Shown: positions 31,612-64,000 of the stretch, piece after piece
Numbering within the stretch: the first letter of the stretch is position 1
Layout: every line of letters starts with the position of its first letter
Assembly: GCA_034766995.1 (NCBI GenBank)
Contig: CM068315.1
Coordinates: 38,829,818 to 38,893,817 of the forward strand
Direction: 5' to 3'
Length of the DNA stretch: 64,000 nucleotides
DNA from: Acanthacorydalis orientalis
Taxonomy: Eukaryota; Arthropoda; Insecta; Megaloptera; Corydalidae
The notes under the pieces: model-generated
What the model was told of the DNA's origin: nothing
The model's input: the letters and a program-made list of their open reading frames with translations, nothing else
The model's database searches: none
Made by a program: the position numbers and the translations under genes

Positions 31612-32107
31612 TCAAAATTTTGACATAAGTGACACTTTATTATTCTGTATTAACATGTAACAATTATTAATAGAAATAACATATAAACACGTGATTAGAC
31701 CAAATCATAATTTCAGTTGGTATATAATTTTATTAACAAATAATATCCTGTAAATAATTATAACTAGAGAAATGCGTATTTTAGAGATGTTTTTGTATTA
31801 TTGTGTGTGTGGAGATCGATACATTATTTAAAATGACATTACATTAATTATATTAATAATGAATTTGTTGTGAAACATATTATTAATTTAATATGAACTA
31901 TGTTCTTTAATTAACATTTCTGCAATCTATAATAAAGTTATACAATAGTTTATCTACATGTCATGGTATGAAAATAATCTTATTAATTTAATGTACATAA
32001 ACATTTTTGTATTTTTTAAACTTCATTTTTTTGGTATTTCCAAATTTTAATGTTACAATATTATTTAAATATTATTATATTTTTCTTCTGTATTTGAATC
32101 AATGGTG

Positions 32108-32109
<2 letters not shown>
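31215..32109. other. intergenic, no gene seen
   Basis: AT-rich sequence between the Tigger and mariner remnants, with one (AT)n array (31562-31607). No coding signal was found. Confidence 0.6.
31562..31607. repeat. (AT)n microsatellite
   Basis: About 23 TA units. Confidence 0.95.
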
Positions 32110-32182
<73 letters not shown>

Positions 32183-32200
32183 TATGTGTGTGTGTGTACT
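32110..32200. repeat. (AT)n(GA)n(GT)n compound microsatellite
   Basis: AT, then GA, then GT runs, immediately upstream of the mariner transposase remnant, whose 5' end it replaces. Confidence 0.95.
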
Positions 32201-33268
32201 TATACACCACTTTGATTTGAAAAAAAGTACAGCTGAAGCTCATCGATTTCTTGCGAAAACTTACGGCGAATCTACTCCATCGGAAACAGCATGTAGAGAT
32301 TGGTTTCGACGATTCAAAAGTGGTGATTGTGACGTTCACGACAAACGACGGGCAGGTCAATTGAAAAAGTTCGAAAATGAACAACTGCAATCTCTATTGG
32401 AAGAAAACCCAGCTCAGACACTCAAAGAATTGGCTCAACATCTCGAAGTCGATAAATCAACAATTTCACTAGATTTACAACCCATGGGAAAAATCCAGAA
32501 AAAATGAAGATAGCTGCAATATGAATTGACCGAAAATGCCATTACTAATCGTTTAAACATCTCGATTTCTTTGTTTGCATGGCATAAAAAGAAGAGTTTC
32601 TTGTGGCGTATCGTGACCGGCGATGAAAAACGGATCTATTTCGACAACACGAAACGTAAGAAATCATGGGTTGATCAACCAACCATCAACGTCGACGCCA
32701 AAGCGAAACATCCACGGTCACAAAGCAATGCTCTTTATTTGGTGGGATATGGAGGGTGTCGTGTATTATGAGCTGTTGAAACTGAAAGAAACAATCACCG
32801 CCGAACGTTATCGACAGCAATTGGAGCGTTTAAATGATAATTTGATACAAAAACGACTATCAATTGCATCAAATCGCATAAAAGTGATTCTTCTCTATGA
32901 CAGCGCTCGGCCCCATGTTGCTGTAGCCGCAAAACAAACACTGATGGAGCTCGGATGGGAGGTTTTCCCGCACGCAGCCTATTCTCCGAAGCGATTACTA
33001 TCTGTTCCGATCTATGCAACACGCTTTGAAAGTTACACAATTCCATAAATACAGAGAAGTCGAAAATTGGTTTGTTGAATGGATTGGCTCAAAAGAAAGA
33101 CCATTCTTTCGTCGCGGAATTCAACTTCTGTTAGAAAAGTGGAAAAAAGTCATAGCTTCCGAAAGCATATACTTTTATAAATGTATTCACACATTCTATT
33201 ATTGAAATAAATACTCAAAAAAAAACACACACACACACAACAGCGACTTTCATTGCAACCTCCTAATA
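32201..33268 (+). mobile_element. mariner element, 5'-truncated and decayed
   Basis: The transposase is broken over three frames. 32201-32507 encodes the HTH region (STAEAHRFLAKTYGE, CRDWFRRFKSGD) up to a stop. The catalytic domain follows at about 32526-32771 and 32740-33000 (IVTGDEK, KRKKSWVD, IWWDMEGVVYYELL, ILLYDSARPHVA). The C-terminus is at 33014-33205. Two catalytic Asp remain. A small deletion near 32985-33000 removes most of the segment between YSP and the third Asp. CAGCGACTTTCATTGCAACC followed by TCCTAATA at 33240-33267 looks like the 3' terminal inverted repeat beside a TA. No 5' copy was found. Confidence 0.85.
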
Positions 33269-35026: not shown

Positions 35027-36298
35027 TCAGGTTGGTGCAAAAATTATTGCGGTTTTTATCATTTTAATTTTGGCGACGATTTTTGTAGTTACCTTTTGTT
35101 ATAATCGATGTTGTGGTATATCATTAGAAAAAAATGAAATTAGCACTATTGATTTCAGTTTATGTCTATTGTTTTCATTCTTTAGTATTGTTGGATACAA
35201 CCTTTTAAATGTAATGAAAAAAGCAAATTCGCGCGATTTTATTGTATGAGTTTAAATTGGGACGTAAAGCAGCAGCAATCGCTCGAAATATCAGATTTGT
35301 TTTTGGTGAAGAGTCAATTAATGAACGTACAGCTCAACATTTGTTCCAAAAATTTCGTAATGGAAATGAAAGCCTTGATAATTAGGAGGGTCGTTGACGT
35401 CCTTCAGCTGTAAACAATAATGATTTAAGAACCATTATTCAAGCGTACCCACGTAAAACAACTAGAGAGGTGGCAGAAGAACTCAATGTTGATCATTCAA
35501 CAGTTGCTCGACATTTGAGCCTAATTGGAAAAACAAAAAAGCTGAATAAATGAGTGCCGTATGAACTAAACGAACATAAAGCAATTCGGCGATACGAAAT
35601 CTGCTCTGCGCTTCTTTTGAATGTTCTCTTTCTTGATCGCATTGTCACATATGATGAAAAGTGGATTCTCTAAAACAATCGAAAACGTTCATCACAATGG
35701 CTAGACCGAGGGGAAGCGCCAAAACCGTTTCCTAAACCGAAGCTTCATGAAAAAAAGAGTATGGTCACTGTTTAGCGGTCGGCAAGTGGTACCATCCACT
35801 AGAACTTCTTAAATCTCGGCGAAACAATAACAGCAGAAAAATATTGATAGGAAATTGAAAAAATGCATGAGATGTTGCATCGTTTACGGTCAGCATTAGT
35901 CAATCGAAGAGGACCAATTCTTCTTCATGACAACGCCCGACCACACGTCTCACAAATGTCTTTACAAAAATTAAATGAATTGGGTTATGAAACCTTACCT
36001 CACCCACCTTATTCTCCGCACCTTTCTCATACAGATTATCATTTTTTTAAACATATGAGTAATTTCCTACGAGAGAACGTTTTCAAAGATCAAGCATCAG
36101 CTCAAAGCCCTTTCGATGAATTCCTTAAATCCAGTACTCCAGAATTCTATCTTGTAGGAATAAACAAACTTATTTTCCCTTGAAAGAAGTGTGTGCAGGT
36201 CAATGATCTTTATTCTGATTAATAAATATATTTTTTTACTGATATATGCATCTTTGTATTTGATACGTAAATCCGCAATTATTTTTATACCAATCTAA
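35027..36298 (+). mobile_element. complete-length dead mariner, cecropia (Hsmar1-like) type
   Basis: 1272 bp between TA dinucleotides. Left terminal repeat CAGGTTGGTGCAAAAATTAT; the right end, reversed, begins TTAGATTGGTATAAAAATAA. Both continue into TTGCGG, so the inverted repeats match at most positions. The transposase is recognisable throughout (LLYEFKLGRKAAAIARNI, REVAEELNVDHSTVARHL, IVTYDEKWIL, HDNARPHVS, LNELGYETLPHPPYSP, TDYHFFKH) but has at least five internal stops and a frameshift by the ATG. 35863-36183 is the longest intact piece. In the third catalytic motif region YSPDL reads YSPHL. The coding pattern resembles the cecropia subfamily that includes human Hsmar1. Confidence 0.9.
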
Positions 36299-50386: not shown

Positions 50387-51746
50387 ATGCCGAAAATCCA
50401 TTATACAGACGATGAGAAGTTACATATTTGCAAAAGTCCATGTTGTCATTCCTGGATGAATTTTATAGGTATGTAATATGAAACTGAGATTTTTACGCAT
50501 TTTTTTTCTGTGCTGTATTCTTTTAGGATATGTATTTTGTGGTATTTTGATTTCAAATTATGGACTGGAGAGTACTTTATGGAGAATAATTTGCGTTTTT
50601 ACCAGTGTTATTCTCGCTCTTGTGAATTTAGAAACTTGGGAAGTAAGATCCTTATTCATTTTTTTAAAAAATATATAGTTTATAACAATTCATAGTTTTA
50701 ATATTAAATATATTTAGTAATAGTTGCCTGTGAAAGATTAATTTTCAAATAGTTTAAAAATTTGCTGTAATGTATTTTATACAATTTATAAATATATAAT
50801 TACTATTAATTTAAATTATTTTTGTATTGATACAAAAAAATATAAGAATAGTGTATTGTTTCATATTAGATACATTTTTTTGTAATGCATGTGCATTGAA
50901 ATATAATTATTTATTTAATATTATTTTTTAATATGTATACATATAAATAAAAATAATTATGTAGTTGTAAATAGCATTAAGTAAATAAGAAGTATGTTTA
51001 TGTGTAAAAATTTTTTTAGGATTGTATAATGGATAAGCAAATGGATCGTTTAATATTGACACAAACTAAATGGTATGATCGATTAATGTGCCGTTTATCA
51101 GATATCAATACGAAGGTGCTTCGTTTGTCTAATGTTGTTAGTGTAACAGCATCGTCTAAAAATGGTTTGCAAATACATTCACGAAATCATGAAACAGTTA
51201 CAATAATAAAATATAGGTAAGTGTTAAATCATATTTATGTTATATTCATTTGATGTATTTATTTTATTTTTAATAATATATTAGTTTTGTTTTTTATGTT
51301 TGTAACTTTCTTATTTCCTTCCCATAAATATTTCTGCATTTATAAAAGAACATTTTCAATTTTTTATTTCAGCATCAATAATTAAAAGTTGATAATTGTT
51401 ATAATGTAAATTATTGTTTTGTATTATTATTAGTAATGTTTATATATCAAATTATATATTTTATAATTTCATTGTCAGTAAAAAAACACCGATGAGGAAT
51501 TTAAAAAAACTCCGTGAAAAAATTAGCTCCTTTCTACATTTAGAACGTGTTGAAAGTGTACCTTGCTATCCTGATTGGAACATGGAATATAGTTTAGCAA
51601 TGTCAGAAGAAATAGATGAGATGTTATCTACTGAAGAGGATGATGATCTTTTACAAGATGCCGAGTCAAGAAAATCAGCACATTTAGGTTGTAGAAATGC
51701 TATAAAAGTCTTAGCAATATACAGAAGAATGAGAGAAGGAACATAA
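50387..51746 (+). CDS. CYBC1: CYBC1/Eros family protein (cytochrome b-245 chaperone 1 homologue)
   Basis: In vertebrates CYBC1 (Eros) is an ER membrane chaperone that stabilises the NOX2 catalytic subunit. Four exons: 50387-50468, 50527-50642, 51020-51216, 51479-51746, in phase, 220 aa (human 187). A short cytosolic Cys-containing start (CKSPCCHSW) precedes one or two membrane segments at about 28-62. The family signature NLETWEDCIMDK follows, then a folded domain (LILTQTKWYDRLMCRLSDIN, NVVSVTA) and a helix (LKKLREKISSFLHLE). An acidic extension ends the protein. The identification rests on recalled similarity to the human protein along its whole length. The function in insects, which lack NOX2, is not known to me. 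Confidence 0.75.
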
Positions 51747-52246
51747 ATCTACCATTATATTTTGTGATTCTTTTTTTCATTTAATATGTAGATTATGTGC
51801 CTTAGTTTCAATCAAATTTAAAAATCAATAATTGATGAAAGCTTAATGGAAAACAAAAATTCAGTATCTGAATTTATTAATGTTTTCAATTCAAGAGGTT
51901 TATTGTGGATGTATTGAAATAAGCCACAAAATGTGGTAATGATAAAATCAAATATATATATTGTACTGTGATTAAAAAAAAATATCAGAATCGATTATGA
52001 TTTATGTATTATTTTTTTATTTCTTTGAACTAATTATCATACAAAAAACAGAATTCTAGTCTATGAAATTCAGGTCCAATGATTTAGTTTGAATTTCAGT
52101 AATATGAAAATAATTTGTCATTTTAAATGACTGATTTTATTTTGTCAAAGAAAAAAAATAGCTATATAAAATAATGGTTTAAGTAACTTACATCATTAGA
52201 TATATTTCTAAAATATGCATTGTATTTAACTTATTGTTATTTATGT

Positions 52247-52283
52247 TTATGTGTGTGTGTATGTATATATATATGTATATATG

Positions 52284-52315
<32 letters not shown>

Positions 52316-52430
52316 CACACACATGTATATATATACACATGTGTATATATATATATACACATACATACACATATGTATATATATGTGTGGGTGGGTGGGT
52401 GGTTGTGTTGGGTGGGTGTATATATAACAA
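52247..52430. repeat. complex (GT)n/(AT)n/(AC)n and (GGGT)n repeat
   Basis: GT, GTAT, AT and CA runs follow each other with near mirror symmetry, ending in GTGGGTGGGTGGGTGG. The G-run part could form a G-quadruplex. Confidence 0.85.
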
Positions 52431-54014
52431 ATATGTGTATACAAAAACAAATAAGCATCATAAAAGTTATTTACTACTTAATGTTATATAAGTTCTGAAA
52501 GTATAAACAAGGTGCTAATTTATTCCTAATTTATGAGATGCATGAAGAGATGAGTTTGTTATTTATTTGAAATATGAAAACAATCTGGTGCTTTTAAAAA
52601 GATGATTTAGTTACATACATTTTAGAAATATCTGAAAGTTTTGAATGTACTTTGATTCATTTTAAATTATGAATTAAACCGAATGAATTACTTGAATATT
52701 ATAATTCATTACTTGAATATAATTTACTACAAATAAATTACTTGGATTTTTTTTAAAAAAAGAATTGAACTGCTGTAAAAACGAATGTTCTGTTTTCACT
52801 TATATTTAAAACATTGTTTAAATTTCAGTTTTCATTTATGTTTAATATTTTCAACCATTAAACATTGCTTTGACAAATGATTATTAAGAATTTTTGGTTA
52901 CAGTATATACATTCTTAATATCCATCACTAAATTTGTGTAAAAATAGAAAACTAAAAAGAAATTAACAATTAGTGTTAGTGCTTATTTTTTTAATAACAT
53001 TTGTTGTAAACAGCTGAAAGAAAATGGAAAGGGTTATTAACTCCTATGTTCATTTATGTAACAATCTTAATTTATTAAAGAAAGTGTACAAATTAAGAAT
53101 TTATTTTACTTCTGTATATTGTATCACTTGAATTGGATATTATTTATTTTCATGACAGTGTTTATTTTGTATGAAACACTTGTCAGTTTTTGTTAATCAA
53201 TGTAATACTGAGTATATGAACTACTAAGTTTTATTTAGACTTGTATTTGTGTATTCATATTTTTATTACATTATTTTATACATGTAAGATAATATTTAAA
53301 CTACCAAGATGTGCATTTAAATAGGCTGGCGATAATATTAGGTTTTTGGTATTTATATTTGTAGTATTTATTGTGTAATATGTTAGAGTTTGTATATTAA
53401 TATATCAATATTATTCTTGTTAACAAAAGTAAAAGTGAATAAGATAAAATAATAAAATTACATTTAATGCAAGGAGACATTTTTTTTGTACATTTTCCAA
53501 GAGTATTTTTTTTTACTAACAGTCTTATCTTTTTTATTGTTTTGAATAATAATTATTGTTATATTTTCAAAATGTACTTATTCGTAATTTGTTAATTACT
53601 GAAAATTTGTAATAGTTTTTATCTTTATTAGTATTGTATTATTCATTGTTTGAATTAATAATATTCGTCACATTGACTAATTTACATTCAGTTTCAAATA
53701 TTAATTTTACAGATAAATTTCAATTTCTAGAAATAAAATGATATATAAGTTGGAAAACAAATAGTGAAAACATTAATCAGTTATATGAAAATTATTATTT
53801 TGTGGTGTAATTCTAAAATAGATATAGAGATTATAATTTTATAGGGCAAATATAGTTACCAGCACATTAGCTTATTCAGTATTTTTATACTACTAGTCTA
53901 ACCTCAAATTGTACCTTTTCTAACATTAGTTTTATGAACATTTGTTTGGGTTAATAATGACTGAAAGTTATTGTATTTAATATAGTGCCTAATAAATATA
54001 CTAAAGTAACTTTT

Positions 54015-54034
54015 CATATATATATATATATATA
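54015..54034. repeat. short (AT)n microsatellite
   Basis: About ten AT units. Confidence 0.85.
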
Positions 54035-54699
54035 AATTAATGTCGTTTCATAAATTATGTATGTATGTATGAAGAAACGAATGCATAGTTTTATGAAAAC
54101 TGACTGGATTTATTTATATTGATGCACGGTGATATGTTATATGCTGGTGTCAATGGTCATTAGAATATTTATTGGTTTATATTTTTTTTATAATATATTT
54201 TATTACAATATTTTCTTATTTGTATGTATAATAAATAATATTTGCTTTATGTAGTATTATTAAAGGAATATGTATGTATGCTTATGAAATGATCACTAAA
54301 TATTATATAAATTATTATTGTTAAAATGTTTTGTAATTAATATAAGTGTGACACTTAAAATGTGTATATGAGTATATTATTTAGTGTATGTATAATTATT
54401 TATATATAGATATTTTAACTAGTAATATAGATTGCAGTGTGTTGTTCATAGCTAAATTATTGTCAGAAAAGTTTGAGATGTTTAAATTTTATTTTTTATG
54501 AATATGTTGTGTATTTATTGTGAGTTATTCAAAATTTAGTTTGTATTAACTGTATTTTGTTGGAGCATAGTGAGTATATAAAAAGATTTGTGCGGATGGT
54601 TTTCTAAATTTTATATATATATCGCAATTTTTAATCTGTAAAGGTTATTGGACATTTGTGTCATACAATGACGGGTGTGGTTCAAAAATTGCAATAGAT

Positions 54700-55440
54700 T
54701 TTCATGTACAGTTCTGACGGTTTTCGTATGTATTAAAGTATAATTTAATTTCTCATAACCTTAGCGGCTCCAATAGCGTTTATTAAATTTCAATCGTAAA
54801 TTTTCTGTAAAAGTGTATGTTAACCCATATCGATCGCATGTTACCTCTAACTACAACTTTTCCACGTATGTCACGCTTGAGATGGCAAGATACATAACTA
54901 CCATAGGATCAGGTGGTCAAAATAACAGAAAAAATTAGCATTCAATTTAGTTTTGAGAGACACCAATGAATGGCGTCAGTTGTTCGATTTATAAGTCATT
55001 TTGTGTATCGTTTTAATATTGGCGAAGAACATGAACATATAAATGCTCTCTTATTGGTCACAGAAAAAGATTTTAAAACAAACAAGAATATATCTAATCT
55101 GAAGCGTGTTTATGCGAAAAATAAAAAAAATATAAAGGCATTGTTACGAAGCAGTGCAGATCACTTAAATCTAGTTTTCAAAGGTCTTCTTGCTATAGTC
55201 TGAATCTTGTTGGCCTCACAAGTAATAGTTTTTTTTTAAATTAATAAATGTGTACATTGTCCTTTACACATTAACAAACATAAATATATTTTTTATAGCT
55301 TCGTGTCAGATACAGGCAGATAGTGGACAGAAAAAGAGAAGTTGTGCTTGTCTTTCTGGAAAAGAAGCCCAAAAGATTATCGTTTACTATGGAAATTAAT
55401 TGCTTTCTGTAACAATCGTTTTCATACCATAGATTTGTAA
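54700..55440 (+). other. GC-richer block, possible exons of an unknown transcript
   Basis: Composition rises above the flanks around 54750-55000 and 55290-55420. A frame at 54970-55203 (77 codons) starts with ATG at 54970. A second piece after a TTTTATAG acceptor-like site (55291-55300) is open for about 35 codons (QIVDRKREVVLVFLEKKPKR in one frame). No family was recognised, and exons of a non-coding RNA are equally possible. Confidence 0.25.
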
Positions 55441-55576
55441 CCTTGTCATCTACAAAGTATTTACCTATGTGCTTGAATGATGCTATAATTTGAATAGCAT
55501 TTTATATAGCAGTTATTAAACAATGATGCATTAAGCTAAAAACAAGGATTCTTTGAAAATATATTTATTTTTAATA

Positions 55577-55616
<40 letters not shown>
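55577..55616. repeat. (AT)n microsatellite
   Basis: About 18 AT units. Confidence 0.95.
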
Positions 55617-55619
<3 letters not shown>

Positions 55620-56615
55620 TTATAAATGAAATTACACCAGTTTTTATTATCATTTTATTTAAAAAGTATTTTATTCACCTCATTGTATTTTTCATTTAGA
55701 TTCATCCAGTTTAGAAGAATTAAATAGAACAATAATATTAAACGAATTAAGAAAAAAGACAACCCCCGGATCTTTATAAATTAAGAAGATTTCATGAAGA
55801 AAAATATGATAAATATTTCACTACTGAAACGTTTTATTTACAATAATGAAATATAAATAGTTACTAATTAAAATGATAAGATTAAATACAAAAAACAGGA
55901 ACACTGAACATTATCTAACAAATAAAAAGAAATTATATCAACGTATATTTTCTATTAATGCTTCAATTATTCATTCAGGTACAAATAGTATTCTGTAAAA
56001 TTATTTATCATAAATGTCTTGTAATATAACTAGTTAAATTAAGTTATAGTATGTTAGCATCAATTTGAGTGATTTAGTTCCATATTTGGAGAAAATGTAT
56101 ATTAATACGTAAATAAATATAAATTTATTTGTATTAAAAAAAGTATTGATTACAATTAGTGTTTTATTTAAGAATTGAGATTGTAAAGAAAGAATAAAAG
56201 AAGAAAAAGCTTGTTAAAGTCTCTATTCCTTTCAAACATACAATTTAAGTATTATTTTTTTAGAAAATTTGTATTGCACTGTATTTATTGGTTGTATATT
56301 AAATAACAAATATATTGATTCTTCTTAATCATTTTTTATTGTATTATATTATTATTTAGCCGCGTGTCAACATACATATATATACTCATTTACAAAAATA
56401 TCTGCATTTATGTCAAACTTAATATTAAAAACACGAATTTTTTATGCATACAAAAAGAAAATTATTAAATAAAAACACAGTGCATTATTTGAAGTATATA
56501 AATTGTTTAAATCTATTTAATTTGGTTTATTATTTAAGTATTTATGAGAAAATTAATAAAAAATTTAAGATAATTTAATATAAACGAATTGGTTCATTGA
56601 ATTCCAGGTCTCGAT

Positions 56616-56647
56616 GGCTTTAGCTGTTGATGAAGCGCCCTAAAGCC
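56616..56647. other. short perfect hairpin
   Basis: GGCTTTAG (56616-56623) and CTAAAGCC (56640-56647) are exact complements around a 16-nt loop that contains TTGATGA. Confidence 0.4.
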
Positions 56648-57240
56648 TGAATAACTAACTTCATTGCATTCTTTTTATAAATAATTGTGAAGTTTGCATT
56701 AAGTTTCGAAAGAACTTAATTTGATAGGTTATTGAAACAATGTTGGTACTACACTTAAAACTTGTCAATTGTTTCTTATCACGCTTGAATTTAATTCACT
56801 TTATTTTGGTTTCTTGTCTGCAGTGGATCAAAATAGGAGAAGTTTTTGGTGACATTTCTTTTCGCAATGGTTATATAGTTGAATATTATTTGTGAGTATT
56901 AATATTTCATTTTTATACGATTGATTCTCTTAATAAATATTTTGCTTATATGTTTTGTTTTTTAATCGAAATAGGAGGATGAATCTTTCAATATGTTTTT
57001 AAAATGTCACGATTCAATTTTTTATTATAAATTAAAGTAATGAAATATAAACGAGTTGCAATAAATCAAAACCATTTTATAAAATTTTTATGGATTGATG
57101 TATATGGATTGATGTATTATATGTTTTACTATTTGAATAATCAATCGGGCGGATACTTTGAGTTACGTTAATGTTTACAATCGATTCATTAAACTGAATT
57201 CAGATCTATAATGGATTTAATAATTGTTCATAATATATAT

Positions 57241-57310
57241 ACAGGCACACCCCGAGTTATGTAACAAGTGATTTAAGTAAATTCGCAGATACGCAATAAA
57301 TTTCTAAAAT
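57241..57310. repeat. possible Tigger-type terminal fragment
   Basis: CAGGCACACCCCGAGTTATG following TATA, with TTCGCAGATACGCAATAAA downstream, has the layout of Tigger ends. No partner end was identified. Confidence 0.3.
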
Positions 57311-58409
57311 TATAATTTGTTCAATTAACAGTGAGTTCAATTAATATTTCATGCTTTGAAATGTTGTTTTTAAGAAGGACGTGTGTGTGTGTTTTTTTTA
57401 AAACACAAACAATATTGAAGTTTATTTAACTCCCTGTTCGTTCTGAATGTACAGTTTGAAGTTAGCTTTCGTTGTGGACATGTTTTTGAGTTTAATGGTA
57501 CTGATCATGTTTTTAAGTAAGTGGAAGTAATCTCTTTGCTGGTCTAATTAAAATCTTCAGGTGTTTGTCATGTTGAGGTGCTATCAAGGTAGAATATCTA
57601 TTCACTGTTTTGAACTCAAAATATTAAATGGAATATTTTTAATTTGACACTTCCCCACCATATACCGCCATATTGGATCAAAAAGTTTTTTTTTTTTTTT
57701 GATAAAACGACGTACACTTGATTTATATTAATATTTTTACAATTATTCAATATTCCGTGCTCCTTTTCTTTTAAAATTCTATTTATAACTGATATGTTTT
57801 TTCCATAAATTAAATTCATTGGGGTTTTTATACACTGATCTTAATTATGTGCATTATTTAATTTCTCGTCAATTAAAAATATTGTTTTTAAGTAAGTCCT
57901 CAGACATATAAGCTTCAATTTTCTGTAAAACAAGATATTCCGTGATTGAAAATAAGTTAGTAAGTAATAAGAATTTTCAATCTCGTTGTTTTGAAACCAT
58001 ATTGGAATCGTGTCTAGCTAATTATAGGTTTTCTTTGTTTAATGTTTAGAAACACATCTCCATTTAATTTTTTAAGATACACAAATTAAAGCTTTGAATA
58101 TAATCATATTTCTAAACAGTTTTTAATATTTTTAAAATTTAATATAGTATTTGTTGAGACGCAGTTCATTGTTAATCATTTATTTATTGAATTTTTTCGA
58201 ATTAAAATTAATTTCTTCAAAAATCAGTTAATTAGTAGTTCTAAAAACTCATTTTTGATTTTTTTACATAATGTTTGATTTTTCAAAAGCTCAATGTTGA
58301 TCATTAATGATTAGAAAGGATTCATTTAATGAGATTTATAAAAAAATAGAGCAAATGACCACCAGAAGGTATTATTTTTTAATATGTTCATAACAAGGTG
58401 TTTATTTTT

Positions 58410-58515
58410 ACAGTGTGAAGAATCATCAGTGTGTAAGGGCATTAGTGTGTTTAGTGTAAAGAAGCATTAGTGTGTTTAGTGTGAAGAATCGGCAGTGTGA
58501 AGAAAAAGATCTACA
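58410..58515. repeat. short direct repeats (AGTGTGAAGAATC / TAGTGTGTTTAGTGT)
   Basis: GTGTGAAGAATC and CATTAGTGTGTTTAGTGT each recur within about 100 bp, directly before copy 1 of the duplicated unit. A single GTGTGAAGAATCAG precedes copy 2 at about 61877. Confidence 0.6.
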
Positions 58516-58786
58516 AAGGTTTGCTAAAGGATGAAAACGTCATAGTATCCAGGTTTTTACAGTCCAATTATTTTTACTGTAAACCAATGCAATTTCCATC
58601 GTGTTTTCCTTTATCAGAGTGAGATTTCACTGATATCGTTTTTTTTTTTTTGAAAAAAAATATTTAAAACAATTCGATATTTATTTTAATATTTAGTTAT
58701 TGAAACGATATCATGTGTACGAATGTATGTGGATGGATATTTATTATTTATTTTCAAACATTAGGTTGATTTCAAGATTGGTTGTC

Positions 58787-58812
58787 TTCAATATATGCGG
58801 TGTTATATTGAG
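58787..58812 (+). ncRNA. conserved hairpin H1, copy 1
   Basis: Nine pairs: TTCAATATA (58787-58795) with TATATTGAG (58804-58812), loop TGCGGTGT. The loop is identical in copy 2, and both differences in the stem keep pairing. Confidence 0.4.
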
Positions 58813-59433
58813 CGATTATCAATTTTGTAATCGACGCACGGAGCTTTCGGGGGTGGATGAATTGCTGTAAAGCGAAGTTGAAGCCTTCGACTCCACGACT
58901 TTTCTACACATGTTTTTCAGGTGTTAGGCGATGGCGCCCGTCGTGCAGCTTAGATTAGGAACGCATATATTAATTCGCTTCACGGGTTGTATATGTCGTC
59001 TCACCTTGTAGCAGGTGTAGCATAGGAGTGGCTCGGATCAAATGGATTTCGAGTCCTAGATCAATGTGTTTTTTCTCTTCATGTTTTCTCTTTCAGGTCC
59101 CAGAACTTCAATCTCTTTTTTTGTTTGTTATAATTTAAAGTAGTTTCTTTTACTTTGTCGATTCAGTAAATGTAAAGTTTTTTTATCGATTTCAATTAGT
59201 TTGGTTGTTAATTTTTTGCTTTTATTTTTTTTAAATATTAGTACTGATTTGTAGTAGTTTTAGTGATTTGTAGTTAGATTATTGAATTAGTAGCAGTTTT
59301 TTCGTTCCAGTTTTATTTTTTCTTAATTGTAGCTTTTATTCGATTTTTAAGTTTTGTTTCTAGTTGATTTAAAGTAGTTTAATTTTGTTTTGATAATTAA
59401 CTTCATTCCCTCGCCATGGAGATGGAGATGTGG

Positions 59434-59460
59434 GGTAATGGTACAAATCGTATCATTACC
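59434..59460 (+). ncRNA. conserved hairpin H2, copy 1
   Basis: Eleven pairs: GGTAATGGTAC (59434-59444) with GTATCATTACC (59450-59460), loop AAATC, one G-U. Compared with copy 2, pair 3 changes T-A to C-G, pair 8 changes G-U to G-C and pair 10 changes A-T to G-U. All pairs are kept. Confidence 0.5.
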
Positions 59461-59623
59461 ATGTGTGTTTGGTAATCAGATCAATTATGCTTCATAACAG
59501 AATGTACATATTAAGATTCTAATACAAGTGATAACGCGTTTTGGAATCTTTTATGTATTATTCGCCTTTGACACATAATTTATTTGGTTAACGTGTGATT
59601 CCCGAAATTGCGTTGGTTGTACA

Positions 59624-59624
<1 letters not shown>

Positions 59625-59678
<54 letters not shown>
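59625..59678. repeat. (AT)n microsatellite within copy 1
   Basis: Lies at the same place as the array at 63040-63080 in copy 2, so it predates the duplication. Confidence 0.95.
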
Positions 59679-59681
<3 letters not shown>

Positions 59682-60659
59682 TAGTTATTTAAGTTCAGTT
59701 AGTGCTTACAGTTAACTCGATTTGTTTTATCAGCCTGGAAAATCATTTTAAATTTGAAAAATGTATCTATATATCTGAAAATAGATCAAATATCATTCAA
59801 CATAAAATAAATCAAATTTTATTTACATCTGATAAAACTTAATTTAATCAAAATGGCAAACTAATTAAACAGAAGACAAAAAGTGTATGATTTTTATGAA
59901 TACTAGATGTATTCAGCTTTTTATCGATTTGAGTAATTATCGAAAGAGTTATGAAAATCGTAACTGCTGCTTACAAATATGTTCATACGAATTGTATATA
60001 TTTCTGGATTCTGGTTAAATGGTTAATTTAGTTTTGATTGAATTCGCGGAGTGTATTCAGTGAAAGTGTCTATCGTCGAATGGATTCTTCAGGTAAGATA
60101 GGTATAATTCTCATCTTCTTTAAATGATATATTTTCTAATAACTTTTTATTTCAGCTGTTAAAAAAATCCACGTAGAGTTCAATCAATTAATTCTTTTTG
60201 ATAATATTTAATCGGTTTCAATTTCCTGTCAGTTTCTTTTCAAAACGATATTTTTTTTTTATTTTTATCATTCAACACACGTACAGAAAATTTCAATTGC
60301 CATTTCTTCGACAATTCATCGATTTTTCTTCGTGATATTCTTTCTATTATTGAATTTAAAACGATTCAAAAACGTTCTTAATACATCTAATAATACTATT
60401 ATTAAAATCAAATATAATATTCATATTATAATGAATATCTTGTGTATAAATGTATTGATCGATTCTCATATAAATTTCTTGCTTTCCAATAACATTAAGT
60501 TCTGTCAACATCATCACCAAGCTAAATAATATACAATTAGTAAAACTACCTTAGCATGAACTGACAGGTTTTTCCACAGTAAATTTATTCATACAAGATT
60601 TAAATCTGACTAAAAAGATATAGATTTTCAAATATCTATTGAATCCGCAATCAGTTTGT

Positions 60660-61345
60660 TGATTTTCTGATTTTCTGTTTCAATGTATTGTTTTTATGAA
60701 AATTAATAGTTGACAGAACATCCAAAATAAATAATTTTTCAATAAATTTCTCTTTTTTTCACAAAATTGATTTATAGACAGTTTCATAGATAACAGTATT
60801 TTTTAATAATACTTTCAATAATTTATTTTTATGTACATAAATAGATCAGATATCATTCAGCTTACACCATTTTTCATTAAACTTCTTTCTTCACAGAAAT
60901 TTTACTTTAAACAATATCTCAGAAGACAGTAATTTGTCAATAAATTTTCAATTTTCTGTTATATCAACAATCACTTCTAGTTTTTCTGATTTTCTGATTC
61001 AATAATTTATTTTTATGTACATAAATATATCAGAGATCACTCAACATGAATCCTTTTTCAATTAATTTTTCTTTTTTCTTTATATAATAATTTTTCGAAT
61101 GACATATTTGTTAATAAATTTTCTAATTTTTACTACAACGACAATCACTTTCTCGATTTTCTAATTTGTCACTTCAATATTTCCTTCTTATACACATAAA
61201 TGGTTCAGACATCATTCAACACAAGTCATTTTTCAATAAATCCCTCTTTCTTCTTTTTAACCATTTGAATCTTAAACGTTTTGTCTGATCCAATCATTTT
61301 TTAATTTATTTCACCAATGAATGACAAAAAAATACTTCAATAGAT
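60660..61345. repeat. degenerate tandem repeat of about 179 bp
   Basis: The block ATTTTTATGTACATAAATA..ATCA..ATCA(T/C)TCA recurs at about 60827, 61006 and 61185, two steps of 179 bp. Each is followed by TTTTTCAATAAATTT-like and TTTTCTGATTTTCTGATT-like strings. A more diverged unit precedes them at about 60660. The related string AAATAGATCAAATATCATTC also occurs inside copy 1 at about 59780. Confidence 0.6.
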
Positions 61346-61407
61346 AAAATTTGTATTTATGATTTTTAACGAACTCATTGTCGTTCATTAGAACAACACA
61401 GGCTGAC

Positions 61408-61452
61408 TTCTAATTTAATCAATCGATCGCGGATCGATTGATTAAATTAGAA
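61408..61452. repeat. perfect 45-bp inverted repeat
   Basis: Arms of 21 bp, 61408-61428 and 61432-61452, are exact complements around GCG. Each arm contains AATCAATCGATC or its complement. It sits immediately upstream of the GC-rich island. Confidence 0.9.
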
Positions 61453-61454
61453 AA

Positions 61455-61870
61455 AAAGCGCTCCTCGTACCGTCCGTCCGTCTGTCATGCCGGCTCGGTT
61501 CGGTCGCGACGCCGGTCGCGTTTATACGACGGCTCGGAGCCGCCAGTACGTGTCGTTTTTAAAAATAATTTGTCATCGAATTCGTCTAAATCAAAATCAT
61601 CTCTTTGAGAATTCCGCGTGTGCGCGAAAAGTAGTAAAAGTAATGTCGGGTATCGTTCGAGTCTTCGGTTGCGTCCTCGATCCTCCTGTCCGAGGCGCCC
61701 GCACGGACGCGCCCGCGACGAGGCTCCGCAGGACAGAGGCACCCGGGAGTGTTTGCTTTTTGATTATCAGATCGGACGTACGACCGTCCGTTAAAAAATA
61801 GTGTACAGTAAATTCGTTTCAAATAAGTGTTCTGTGGTTCCTGTCCGAGATGGAGTGCTGGCCGGCGAGC
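61455..61870 (+). promoter_or_regulatory. GC-rich, CpG-rich island, probable promoter / first exon
   Basis: By far the most GC-rich stretch of the window, dense in CG dinucleotides, with CCGTCCGTCCGTC and GGCTCGGAGCC strings. It ends about 30 bp before copy 2. An ATG at 61850 opens 59 codons that run into the duplicated unit, but this frame is not kept in copy 1. Most likely the promoter and first exon of a plus-strand transcript. The direction is inferred from the duplicated unit's splice-like sites. Confidence 0.45.
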
Positions 61871-62148
61871 AGATTGTGTGAAGAATCAGTTTGTATGAAG
61901 GATAAGAATCGACACCAGGTTTTTTCAGTACAATTATCTTTTGCTGTAAACCAACGCAATTTCCATCGTGTTTTCCTCTATTATCACAGTGAGTTTTCAC
62001 TGATATCGTTTTTACAAAAAAATGTTTAAAACAATTCGACATTCATTTTCATATCTAGCTATTGAAACGATATCATGTGCATGTATGCATGTGGACGAAT
62101 ACTTATTATTTATTTTCAATCATTAGGTCGGTTCCAAGACTGACGATC

Positions 62149-62174
62149 TTCAGTATATGCGGTGTTATATTGAA
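62149..62174 (+). ncRNA. conserved hairpin H1, copy 2
   Basis: TTCAGTATA (62149-62157) pairs with TATATTGAA (62166-62174) around loop TGCGGTGT. Confidence 0.4.
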
Positions 62175-62842
62175 CGATTGTCAGTTTTGTAATCGGCGCA
62201 CGGAGCTTTCGGGGTGGATGAATTGCTGTCGAGCGAAGTTGAAGCCTCCGACTCCACGATTTCTCTACACATGTTTTTCAGGTGTTAGGTTAAGGCTGCC
62301 CGTCGTGCAGCTTAGATTAGGGAACGCATATCACGGATCCGCTTCACGGGTTGTATATGTCGTCTCACCTTGTAGCAGGTGTAGCGTAGGTGTGGCTCGG
62401 ATCAAATGGATTTCGAGTCCTAGATCATTGTATTTTTTCTCTCTGTGTTTTCTCTTTCAGGTCCCAGAACTTCAGTCTCTTTTTTTGTTTGTTGTAATTT
62501 AAAGTAGTTTTTTTTACTTTGTCGATTCAGTAAATTTAGAGTTTTTTGTCGATTTCAGTTTGTTTAGAGTTAAATTTTTTAACATTAGTATTGATTTGTT
62601 TTCAATGAATTAGTAGTAATTTAATTTTATTTCAGTTTTATTTATTCTTAAATGTAGCTCTTGTTTGATTTTTAAGATTTGTTTTTAGTCGATTTAAAGT
62701 AGTTTAATTTTGTATTGATAATTAACTTCGATTTAATTTTGTTTTGATTTGATAATTAATTTTGTTTTGATAATTAACTTCAATTTAATTTTGTTTAATT
62801 TTGTTTTGATAATTAACTTCATTCCCTCGCCATGGATTGTGG

Positions 62843-62869
62843 GGCAATGGTGCAAATCGTACCATTGCC
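62843..62869 (+). ncRNA. conserved hairpin H2, copy 2
   Basis: GGCAATGGTGC (62843-62853) pairs with GTACCATTGCC (62859-62869) around loop AAATC, with one G-U. Confidence 0.5.
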
Positions 62870-63034
62870 ATATGTGTTTGGTAATCAGACCAATTATGCT
62901 TCATAACAGAATCTGCATATTAAGATTCGAATACAAGTGATAACGCGTTTTGGAATCTTGTATGCATTGTTCGCCTTTGATACATAATTTGTTTGGTTAA
63001 TGTGTGATTCCCGAAATTGCGTTTGCGTTATACA

Positions 63035-63039
<5 letters not shown>

Positions 63040-63080
<41 letters not shown>
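63040..63080. repeat. (AT)n microsatellite within copy 2
   Basis: Shorter than its counterpart in copy 1 at 59625-59678. Confidence 0.95.
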
Positions 63081-63084
<4 letters not shown>

Positions 63085-64000
63085 TAGTTATTTAAGTTCA
63101 GTTAGTGCATACAGTTAACTCGATTTGTTTTATCAGACTGGTAAACGTTTGAAATCTGAAAATAGATCAAATTTCATTTACATCTGATAAAACTAAATTT
63201 AATCAAAATGGCAAACTAGTTAGACAGAGGACAGAAAGTGTACGATTTTTATGAATACTAGATGTATTCGGCTTTCTATCAATTCGAGTGATGATCGAAA
63301 GGGATTCATGAAAATCGTAATCGCCGCTTACAAATATGTTCATACAAATTGTATTAATTTCTCGATTCTGGTTAAATGGTTAATTTAGTTTTGATTAAAT
63401 TCGCGGAGTGTATTCAGTGTAGTGTCTACCATCGATGGATTCATTAGGTAAAAAAGGTAAAAAAGGTAAAAATATATTTTTTAAAATGATATATTTTCTA
63501 ATAACTTTTTATTTCAGCTGTCAAGACAATCATATCGAGTAAAATCATTTTTTTTTTCAATAATATTCAATCTGTTTCTATTTCCTGTCAGTTCTTTTTT
63601 AAAAACGATAATGTTTTCAATTTTTATCGTTTAATAAACTATCAGAAAATTTCAATTACCGTTCTTTAGATAATTCATCGATTTTCTTTTCTAGATATTT
63701 CTTTAATTGAACATATAAAGATTCAAAAACTTTCAGTACCAACATTCAAATCGAATATAATATCCGTATCACAATTAATAACTTGTATTGAAGTGTATCG
63801 ATCGATTCTCATATAAATTTCTTGCTTCACAATAACTTAAGTTCTGTCAACATCATCACTGAGCTAAATAATATACAATTAATAAAACTACCCCCCATCA
63901 TGAACTGACAGGTTTTGCCACAGTAAATTCATTCTTATAAGATTTAAATCCGACTTAAAAGATATGGATTTTCACATATCTCTTGGATCCACAATCAGTT

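What the first reader, a model, noticed from the sequence alone, without database searches (positions are those of the whole stretch)
58528..64000. Tandemly duplicated non-coding unit of at least 2.1 kb, possibly an unknown lncRNA family
Two direct copies about 3.4 kb apart keep long blocks of high identity, while indels between them break every long frame. Splice-like sites (GTGAGT/GTGAGA, CTTTCAG before GTCCCAGAACTTC) are kept in both. Copy 2 continues past the window edge, so an array may exist. This pattern fits a multi-exon non-coding RNA gene that grew by duplication; a large non-coding transposon is the main alternative.
Basis: partly seen in the sequence, partly recalled or inferred. 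Interest (0 to 1): 0.8.

Follow-up and report, generated by a model that had tools for sequence, protein, structure and literature searches.

The report
Duplicated insect RNA-hairpin locus
An insect genome carries two side-by-side, diverged copies of a stretch that shows no sign of coding for protein but keeps several RNA hairpins folded the same way in both copies, so it may be an unrecognised RNA gene, although no evidence of transcription could be examined.

Summary
Copy 1 (58549-60656) and copy 2 (61915-64000, cut by the window edge) lie about 3.36 kb apart and align at 86% ungapped identity. Conservation is patchy beyond chance, and none of 47 in-frame stretches looks convincingly coding. 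No third copy was found in the window, and no Rfam family reaches its threshold.

The new result is structural. Three long plus-strand hairpins (A, C, D) fold better than all 200 shuffles in both copies; a short stem, B, is also kept. In A, 13 substitutions fall in 81 columns and nine pairs change, yet all 29 pairs survive. Random-substitution tests lean to the plus strand for A-D; sliding controls are near neutral.

I read it as a tandemly duplicated, probably plus-strand, structured non-coding RNA gene, with a lineage-specific pri-miRNA-like hairpin cluster as likeliest mechanism. The main rival is non-coding 5' exons or introns of a gene beyond the edge. The splice-site argument is weak: a strong conserved donor-like word lies on the minus strand. 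The host is an insect grouping beside beetles on a long branch. Expression and genome-wide copy number could not be tested.

The parts
58549..60656 (+). Copy 1 of the duplicated unit
   Evidence: blastn and global alignment to copy 2
61915..64000 (+). Copy 2 of the duplicated unit, cut off by the window edge
58765..58835 (+). Hairpin A, copy 1 (29 bp, 71 nt)
   Evidence: z -5.64, 0 of 200 shuffles; alifold
62127..62197 (+). Hairpin A, copy 2 (30 bp)
   Evidence: z -7.42, 0 of 200 shuffles; 9 changed pairs all kept
59434..59460 (+). Stem B, copy 1 (11 bp)
   Evidence: 1 double and 2 single changes, none breaking a pair
62843..62869 (+). Stem B, copy 2 (11 bp)
59473..59590 (+). Hairpin C, copy 1 (44 bp, 118 nt)
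   Evidence: z -5.05, 0 of 200 shuffles
62882..62999 (+). Hairpin C, copy 2 (43 bp)
   Evidence: z -3.96, 0 of 200 shuffles
59880..60003 (+). Hairpin D, copy 1 (44 bp, 124 nt)
   Evidence: z -4.57, 0 of 200 shuffles
63235..63361 (+). Hairpin D, copy 2 (41 bp)
   Evidence: z -3.89, 0 of 200 shuffles
60093..60155 (+). Candidate small intron, copy 1: donor 12.3 bits here but 4.6 in copy 2; 3' part identical in both
   Evidence: 60125-60157 33 of 33 identical, 60084-60124 68%; words scored; inference
61408..61452 (.). 45-bp palindrome just before the GC-rich block
61455..61860 (.). GC-rich, CpG-rich block, possible promoter of copy 2 or of a gene beyond the edge
   Evidence: GC 52.5%, CpG observed/expected 1.79 against 1.19 for the window; role inferred

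Best explanation
A tandemly duplicated non-coding RNA gene, transcribed left to right, whose transcript carries a cluster of hairpins (A, B, C, D). Shown: the duplication, the lack of a convincing coding signal, patchy conservation, and hairpins whose pairing survives substitution, mostly better on the plus strand. Inferred: transcription, perhaps from the CpG-rich block before copy 2, and processing of the larger hairpins by the small-RNA machinery, so that the locus is a lineage-specific pri-miRNA-like cluster that doubled by unequal crossing-over. If they are not processed, they would act as protein-binding structures of a long non-coding RNA.
For: A, C and D fold better than 200 of 200 dinucleotide shuffles in both copies. 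In A, 13 substitutions, 29 of 29 pairs kept against 25.5 expected, p 0.005. Random-substitution test on folding energy, plus strand, two directions: A .0017/.09, B .0105/.19, C .0175/.013, D .0485/.0005; 100-base sliding controls have medians .40-.49. 7 of the 14 strongest folds of the window lie in its last 5.6 kb, 5 of 12 after collapsing duplicates, p .0024, with a cut-off set after seeing the list. Patchy conservation, p < .0005. No coding signal.
Against: No expression data. Only two sequences, and each of A and B is significant in one direction of the test only. The minus strand is not silent: A .040/.081, and fold E at 59710-59860 is better on the minus strand.001/.48. For pairs kept, B, C and D alone are not significant (p .15.25.62). 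A's arms are no better conserved than the surroundings (22/31 and 28/32) while its loop is fixed (8/8), unlike a typical miRNA; D's arms 69/77 against loop 40/49 is a trend only. No Rfam miRNA family reaches its threshold.
Confidence: 0.48

Rival explanations
1. The units are duplicated promoter-proximal non-coding exons and introns of a protein-coding gene that starts near 61.5-61.9 kb and continues past the edge; the hairpins lie in its introns or 5' leader.
For: The GC-rich, CpG-rich block 61455-61860 lies just before copy 2. Conserved acceptor-like words and a candidate small intron on the plus strand.
Against: Copy 1 has no such block before it: 58000-58500 has GC 24.6% and CpG observed/expected 0.57. 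No coding exon was seen in either copy. It does not by itself explain kept pairing.
Confidence: 0.27
2. A large non-coding mobile element or a set of fold-back elements (MITEs) that happens to lie twice here.
For: Long hairpins resemble fold-back elements; mariner-type relics lie in the window. Genome-wide copy number is unknown.
Against: No further copy in the window by blastn at E 1e-4 or by profile search with A, B, C, D and the 58921-59165 block. Several distinct hairpins are kept in the same order in both copies, with compensatory change. No transposase-like frame in the unit was noticed.
Confidence: 0.15
3. A neutral segmental duplication of intergenic DNA, or two divergent alleles placed in tandem by the assembler; hairpins and patchiness are accidents or gene conversion.
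For: Only two copies are seen, and gene conversion can make conservation patchy.
Against: Patchiness exceeds all 2000 permutations, TA run left out. Hairpin substitutions keep folding energy better than random placement. 14% divergence and a 1.2-kb spacer with other sequence are unlike alleles.
Confidence: 0.1

Closest known systems
Polycistronic miRNA clusters that grow by tandem duplication (recalled; one search listed one hairpin-RNA paper, PMC10317233, listing and abstract start only)
   Same: Several hairpins of 71-127 nt in order within 1.3 kb on one strand, duplicated in tandem
   Different: No small-RNA evidence; no Rfam family at threshold; hairpin A's arms vary and its loop is fixed
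Structured long non-coding RNAs with repeated stem-loops, such as roX of Drosophila (recalled, not tested)
   Same: Stems kept by paired changes, no coding signal
   Different: No sequence or functional link tested
ANTSR, the sex-determining lncRNA locus of ants and bees (PMC12594375, PMC12588609, PMC12799146: search listing with abstract starts only)
   Same: An insect non-coding locus
   Different: Neighbours here include BRD7 and a CYBC1/EROS-like gene, not the genes I recall beside ANTSR; the host groups near beetles, not Hymenoptera

Membership tests
miRNA cluster | Stable single hairpins of precursor size | tested here: met
   A, C, D in both copies, 0 of 200 shuffles fold as well; MFEI 0.78-1.21
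miRNA cluster | Arms better conserved than loop | tested here: inconclusive
   A: arms 22/31 and 28/32, loop 8/8 (opposite); C: 46/50 and 47/52, loop 16/16 (opposite); D: 69/77 against 40/49 (trend)
miRNA cluster | Belongs to a described family | tested here: not met
   No Rfam match at gathering score; the weak mir-1542 hit on hairpin C, minus strand, has 21.7 bits against 70 needed
miRNA cluster | 21-23-nt reads with 2-nt overhangs | not testable with these tools
   No small-RNA data
Long non-coding RNA gene | No conserved coding frame | tested here: met
   47 ungapped in-frame stretches, none convincing; a 26-codon micro-ORF has nominal p 0.023 before correction
Long non-coding RNA gene | Transcription and splicing | not testable with these tools
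   No RNA data; splice-like words on both strands
Transposable element | Further dispersed copies | tested here: inconclusive
   None in this window; the genome search did not complete
Transposable element | Defined ends with target-site duplications | not testable with these tools
   The right end of copy 2 lies beyond the edge
tRNA or SINE | tRNA-like head | tested here: not met
   ARAGORN 0 genes; no tRNA model at E 10 on 58900-59120 or 62100-62480

The most novel reading that the evidence does not exclude
A previously undescribed, lineage-specific, tandemly amplifying insect RNA gene: each unit encodes an ordered set of hairpins whose structure rather than sequence is under selection, either a fast-evolving small-RNA cluster or a structured chromatin-type lncRNA.
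Probability: 0.3. Interest if true: 0.6.

Novelty: new member of a known kind. Interest (0 to 1): 0.42.

Why it matters
If transcribed, this is a non-coding RNA locus caught in tandem duplication, with paralogues diverged enough to show compensatory changes without a second genome. That offers a way to find structured RNA genes in unannotated insects. If the hairpins are processed, it adds lineage-specific small RNAs to a poorly sampled part of the insect tree.

Tried and rejected
Coding gene or pseudogene: set aside on frames and pN/pS and no homologue for the longest frame of copy 2. One search looked only at ungapped blocks of at least 18 codons, so a frame crossing a three-base indel would be split. 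A 26-codon micro-ORF (59951/63308) has nominal Fisher p 0.023, is one of 47 stretches, and overlaps hairpin D; kept as a lead. tarsal-less-type peptides (LDPTG motif, recalled): none in six frames. Rfam with loose thresholds: four weak hits in 57000-64000 (mir-297 three times on the TA run, mir-1542 once on hairpin C, minus strand), one chance-level snR76 hit, none. tRNA/SINE: none; A-box- and B-box-like words near 59017-59060 were read by eye only. Type-3 Pol III promoter: GTGATTCCCGAAATTG before the TA run looked PSEA-like, but a U1-like pattern recalled from memory had 0 matches at 3 mismatches, ATTCCCNAA is at chance level, and the U6 PSEA in PMC4227766 (passages) fits poorly by eye. Telomerase RNA (PMC9841428, passages): no template noticed by eye, no search made. 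ANTSR: set aside on recalled neighbours and on the host. A 27-mer common to both copies has no exact match in genome contigs or viral contigs. Six hairpin-derived words: 0 papers. Strepsiptera genome searches gave listings only.

The stem-length scan was too lax and is not used. In the alifold scan the TA run scores as extreme as hairpin A (z -7.7 plus, -9.4 minus), so A rests. One Fisher test (hairpin D arms against loop) was given a wrong count, 6 arm differences instead of 8, and is discarded. The first nhmmer run printed no rows and was redone. The weight matrices are approximate, recalled values.

Full report
WHAT IS THERE. The last 5.5 kb of the window hold two same-strand copies of one unit. 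Blastn pairs 58549-60656 with 61915-64000; a global alignment gives 1743 identical of 2023 ungapped columns. Similarity still runs at base 64000. It may reach a little further left: the word TGTGAAGAATC occurs at 58414, 58480 and 61877 and nowhere else in the window, but the part of the flank blastn that was printed shows only short chance-level matches. Between the copies lie degenerate 139/175-bp repeats (60620-61256), a 45-bp palindrome and a GC-rich block. No third copy was found in the window, by blastn at E 1e-4 or by profiles of A, B, C, D and 58921-59165, whose other hits are the hairpins' own reverse strands or lie below the inclusion threshold.

SETTING. The genome is an insect's. 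Pfam finds a La-domain protein, an RRM protein, an SGF29 tudor protein, two MRJP/yellow pieces and a BRD7-type protein; 4 of the 10 pieces scanned had no family. One search adds mariner-type transposase relics and a CYBC1/EROS-like gene, 50387-51746 (exons). The best relatives of BRD7 among the 120 of 508 hits listed have 54% local identity; in the tree alignment the highest is 60% over 481 columns. The tree, 63 rows with a quick method, puts it beside beetles (support 98) on a branch of 0.79, flagged as long and so unsure. Strepsiptera or Neuropterida would fit; that is inference, since no named member of either was in the tree. Window GC is 26.1%; one snakefly genome is given as 33.34% (PMC11150267, passages). 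The CYBC1-like protein had no hit at E 0.001 among 125 candidates.

IS IT CODING? No convincing sign. Four single-base indels fall between about 58850 and 58970. Of 47 ungapped in-frame stretches of at least 18 codons on both strands, none stands out after allowing for the number looked at. The 147-aa frame of copy 2 shared words with 11 candidates, none at E <= 1.

IS IT UNDER CONSTRAINT? With the TA run left out, identity is patchier than in all 2000 permutations; a two-state model splits it into blocks of about 91% and 76%. Thirty-three columns at 60125-60157, around an acceptor-like word, are identical, while 60084-60124 is 68% identical, as expected of a used acceptor. But the donor of that candidate intron is good in copy 1 only (12.3 against 4.6 bits), and the best donor-like word kept in both copies is on the minus strand (59004, 11.4 bits). 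Splice words do not settle the strand.

RNA STRUCTURE. RNAalifold on the two copies picked out a hairpin at 58765-58835 (z -8.4 against 60 column shuffles; the TA run scored about as high). Single-sequence folds give, for copies 1/2, A z -5.64/-7.42, C -5.05/-3.96, D -4.57/-3.89, with 0 of 200 shuffles as good in all six. The same test on three other pieces was weaker: stem B with flanks -2.35/-2.86, and 58838-58921 and 58921-59060 with their partners between -0.82 and +0.31. In A the 13 substitutions change nine pairs and break none: two double, seven single. Stem B goes from GGTAATGGTAC/GTATCATTACC to GGCAATGGTGC/GTACCATTGCC with all 11 pairs kept. One search shows only pairs chosen to fit both copies, so its count of broken pairs is zero by construction on both strands; the fairer test is, which folds copy 1 alone. 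There A keeps 29 of 29 pairs (25.5 expected, p .005), B 11 of 11 (p .15), C 42 of 44 (p .25), D 38 of 44 (p .62), and the other five pieces tried on the plus strand show nothing by pairs kept.

Energy tests with the same substitutions placed at random give, plus strand, two directions: A .0017/.09, B .0105/.19, C .0175/.013, D .0485/.0005. Minus strand: A .040/.081, B .066/.13, C .051/.21, D .24/.07. A fifth fold, E (59710-59860), is better on the minus strand (.001/.48; plus .012/.60). Sliding 100-base pieces, 38 per strand and including pieces of the hairpins, have medians of .40-.49, with 1 to 3 of 38 below .05. In a whole-window scan (5830 folds, the 500 best for their GC then shuffled, long TA runs skipped), 7 of the 14 loci with z at or below -4.5 lie in 58.4-64 kb. 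The chance of that is 7.7e-5, or .0024 for 5 of 12 with duplicates collapsed. The cut-off was set after seeing the list. The seven are A and C in both copies, E in copy 2, the palindrome and a minisatellite fold at 58401.

HOW IT MOST LIKELY WORKS. A plus-strand transcript carries the hairpins. The size and spacing of A, C and D (71, 118 and 124 nt within 1.3 kb) resemble a polycistronic miRNA precursor, and D has the right conservation trend (arms 69/77, loop 40/49). A and C do not: their loops are fixed while their arms vary, which suits a structural element or a fast-evolving hairpin better. I therefore claim a structured RNA gene first (about 0.48), with miRNA-type processing as the likeliest single mechanism within it. 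The block before copy 2 (GC 52.5%, CpG observed/expected 1.79) may be its promoter, or that of a gene beyond the edge, which is the main rival.

WHAT IS KNOWN. No Rfam 15 family reaches its threshold in the window; weak hits are given in Tried and rejected. No paper in the open-licence library holds any of six hairpin-derived words. Searches on ANTSR, tandemly duplicated lncRNAs, hairpin clusters, snRNA promoters and telomerase RNA gave no matching description in the listings and passages seen.

LIMITS. Two sequences from one genome, no expression data, nothing beyond the edge; the genome search did not complete. On re-checking I lowered the leading confidence from about 0.5 to 0.48, because one search supports kept pairs for A alone.

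Noticed in passing
61408-61452: A 45-bp palindrome with 21-bp arms directly before the GC-rich block; the strongest fold of the window scan (z -7.8).
   Followed up: partly
60620-61256: Degenerate 139/175-bp tandem repeats between the copies; a relative lies inside copy 1 at 59754-59831, where copy 2 lacks about 40 bases.
   Followed up: partly
51760-58400 against the two units: CpG observed/expected is 0.77 in the left flank and 0.72 in 60660-61400, but 1.37 and 1.35 in the two units (window 1.19); not explained.
   Followed up: no
32001-33048 and 35851-36183: Pieces of mariner-type transposases.
   Followed up: no
50387-51746: A four-exon CYBC1/EROS-like gene (Pfam E 1.5e-10) with no hit in the protein search.
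   Followed up: partly
59951 and 63308: A 26-codon ATG frame kept in both copies (nominal p 0.023, one of 47 stretches).
   Followed up: partly
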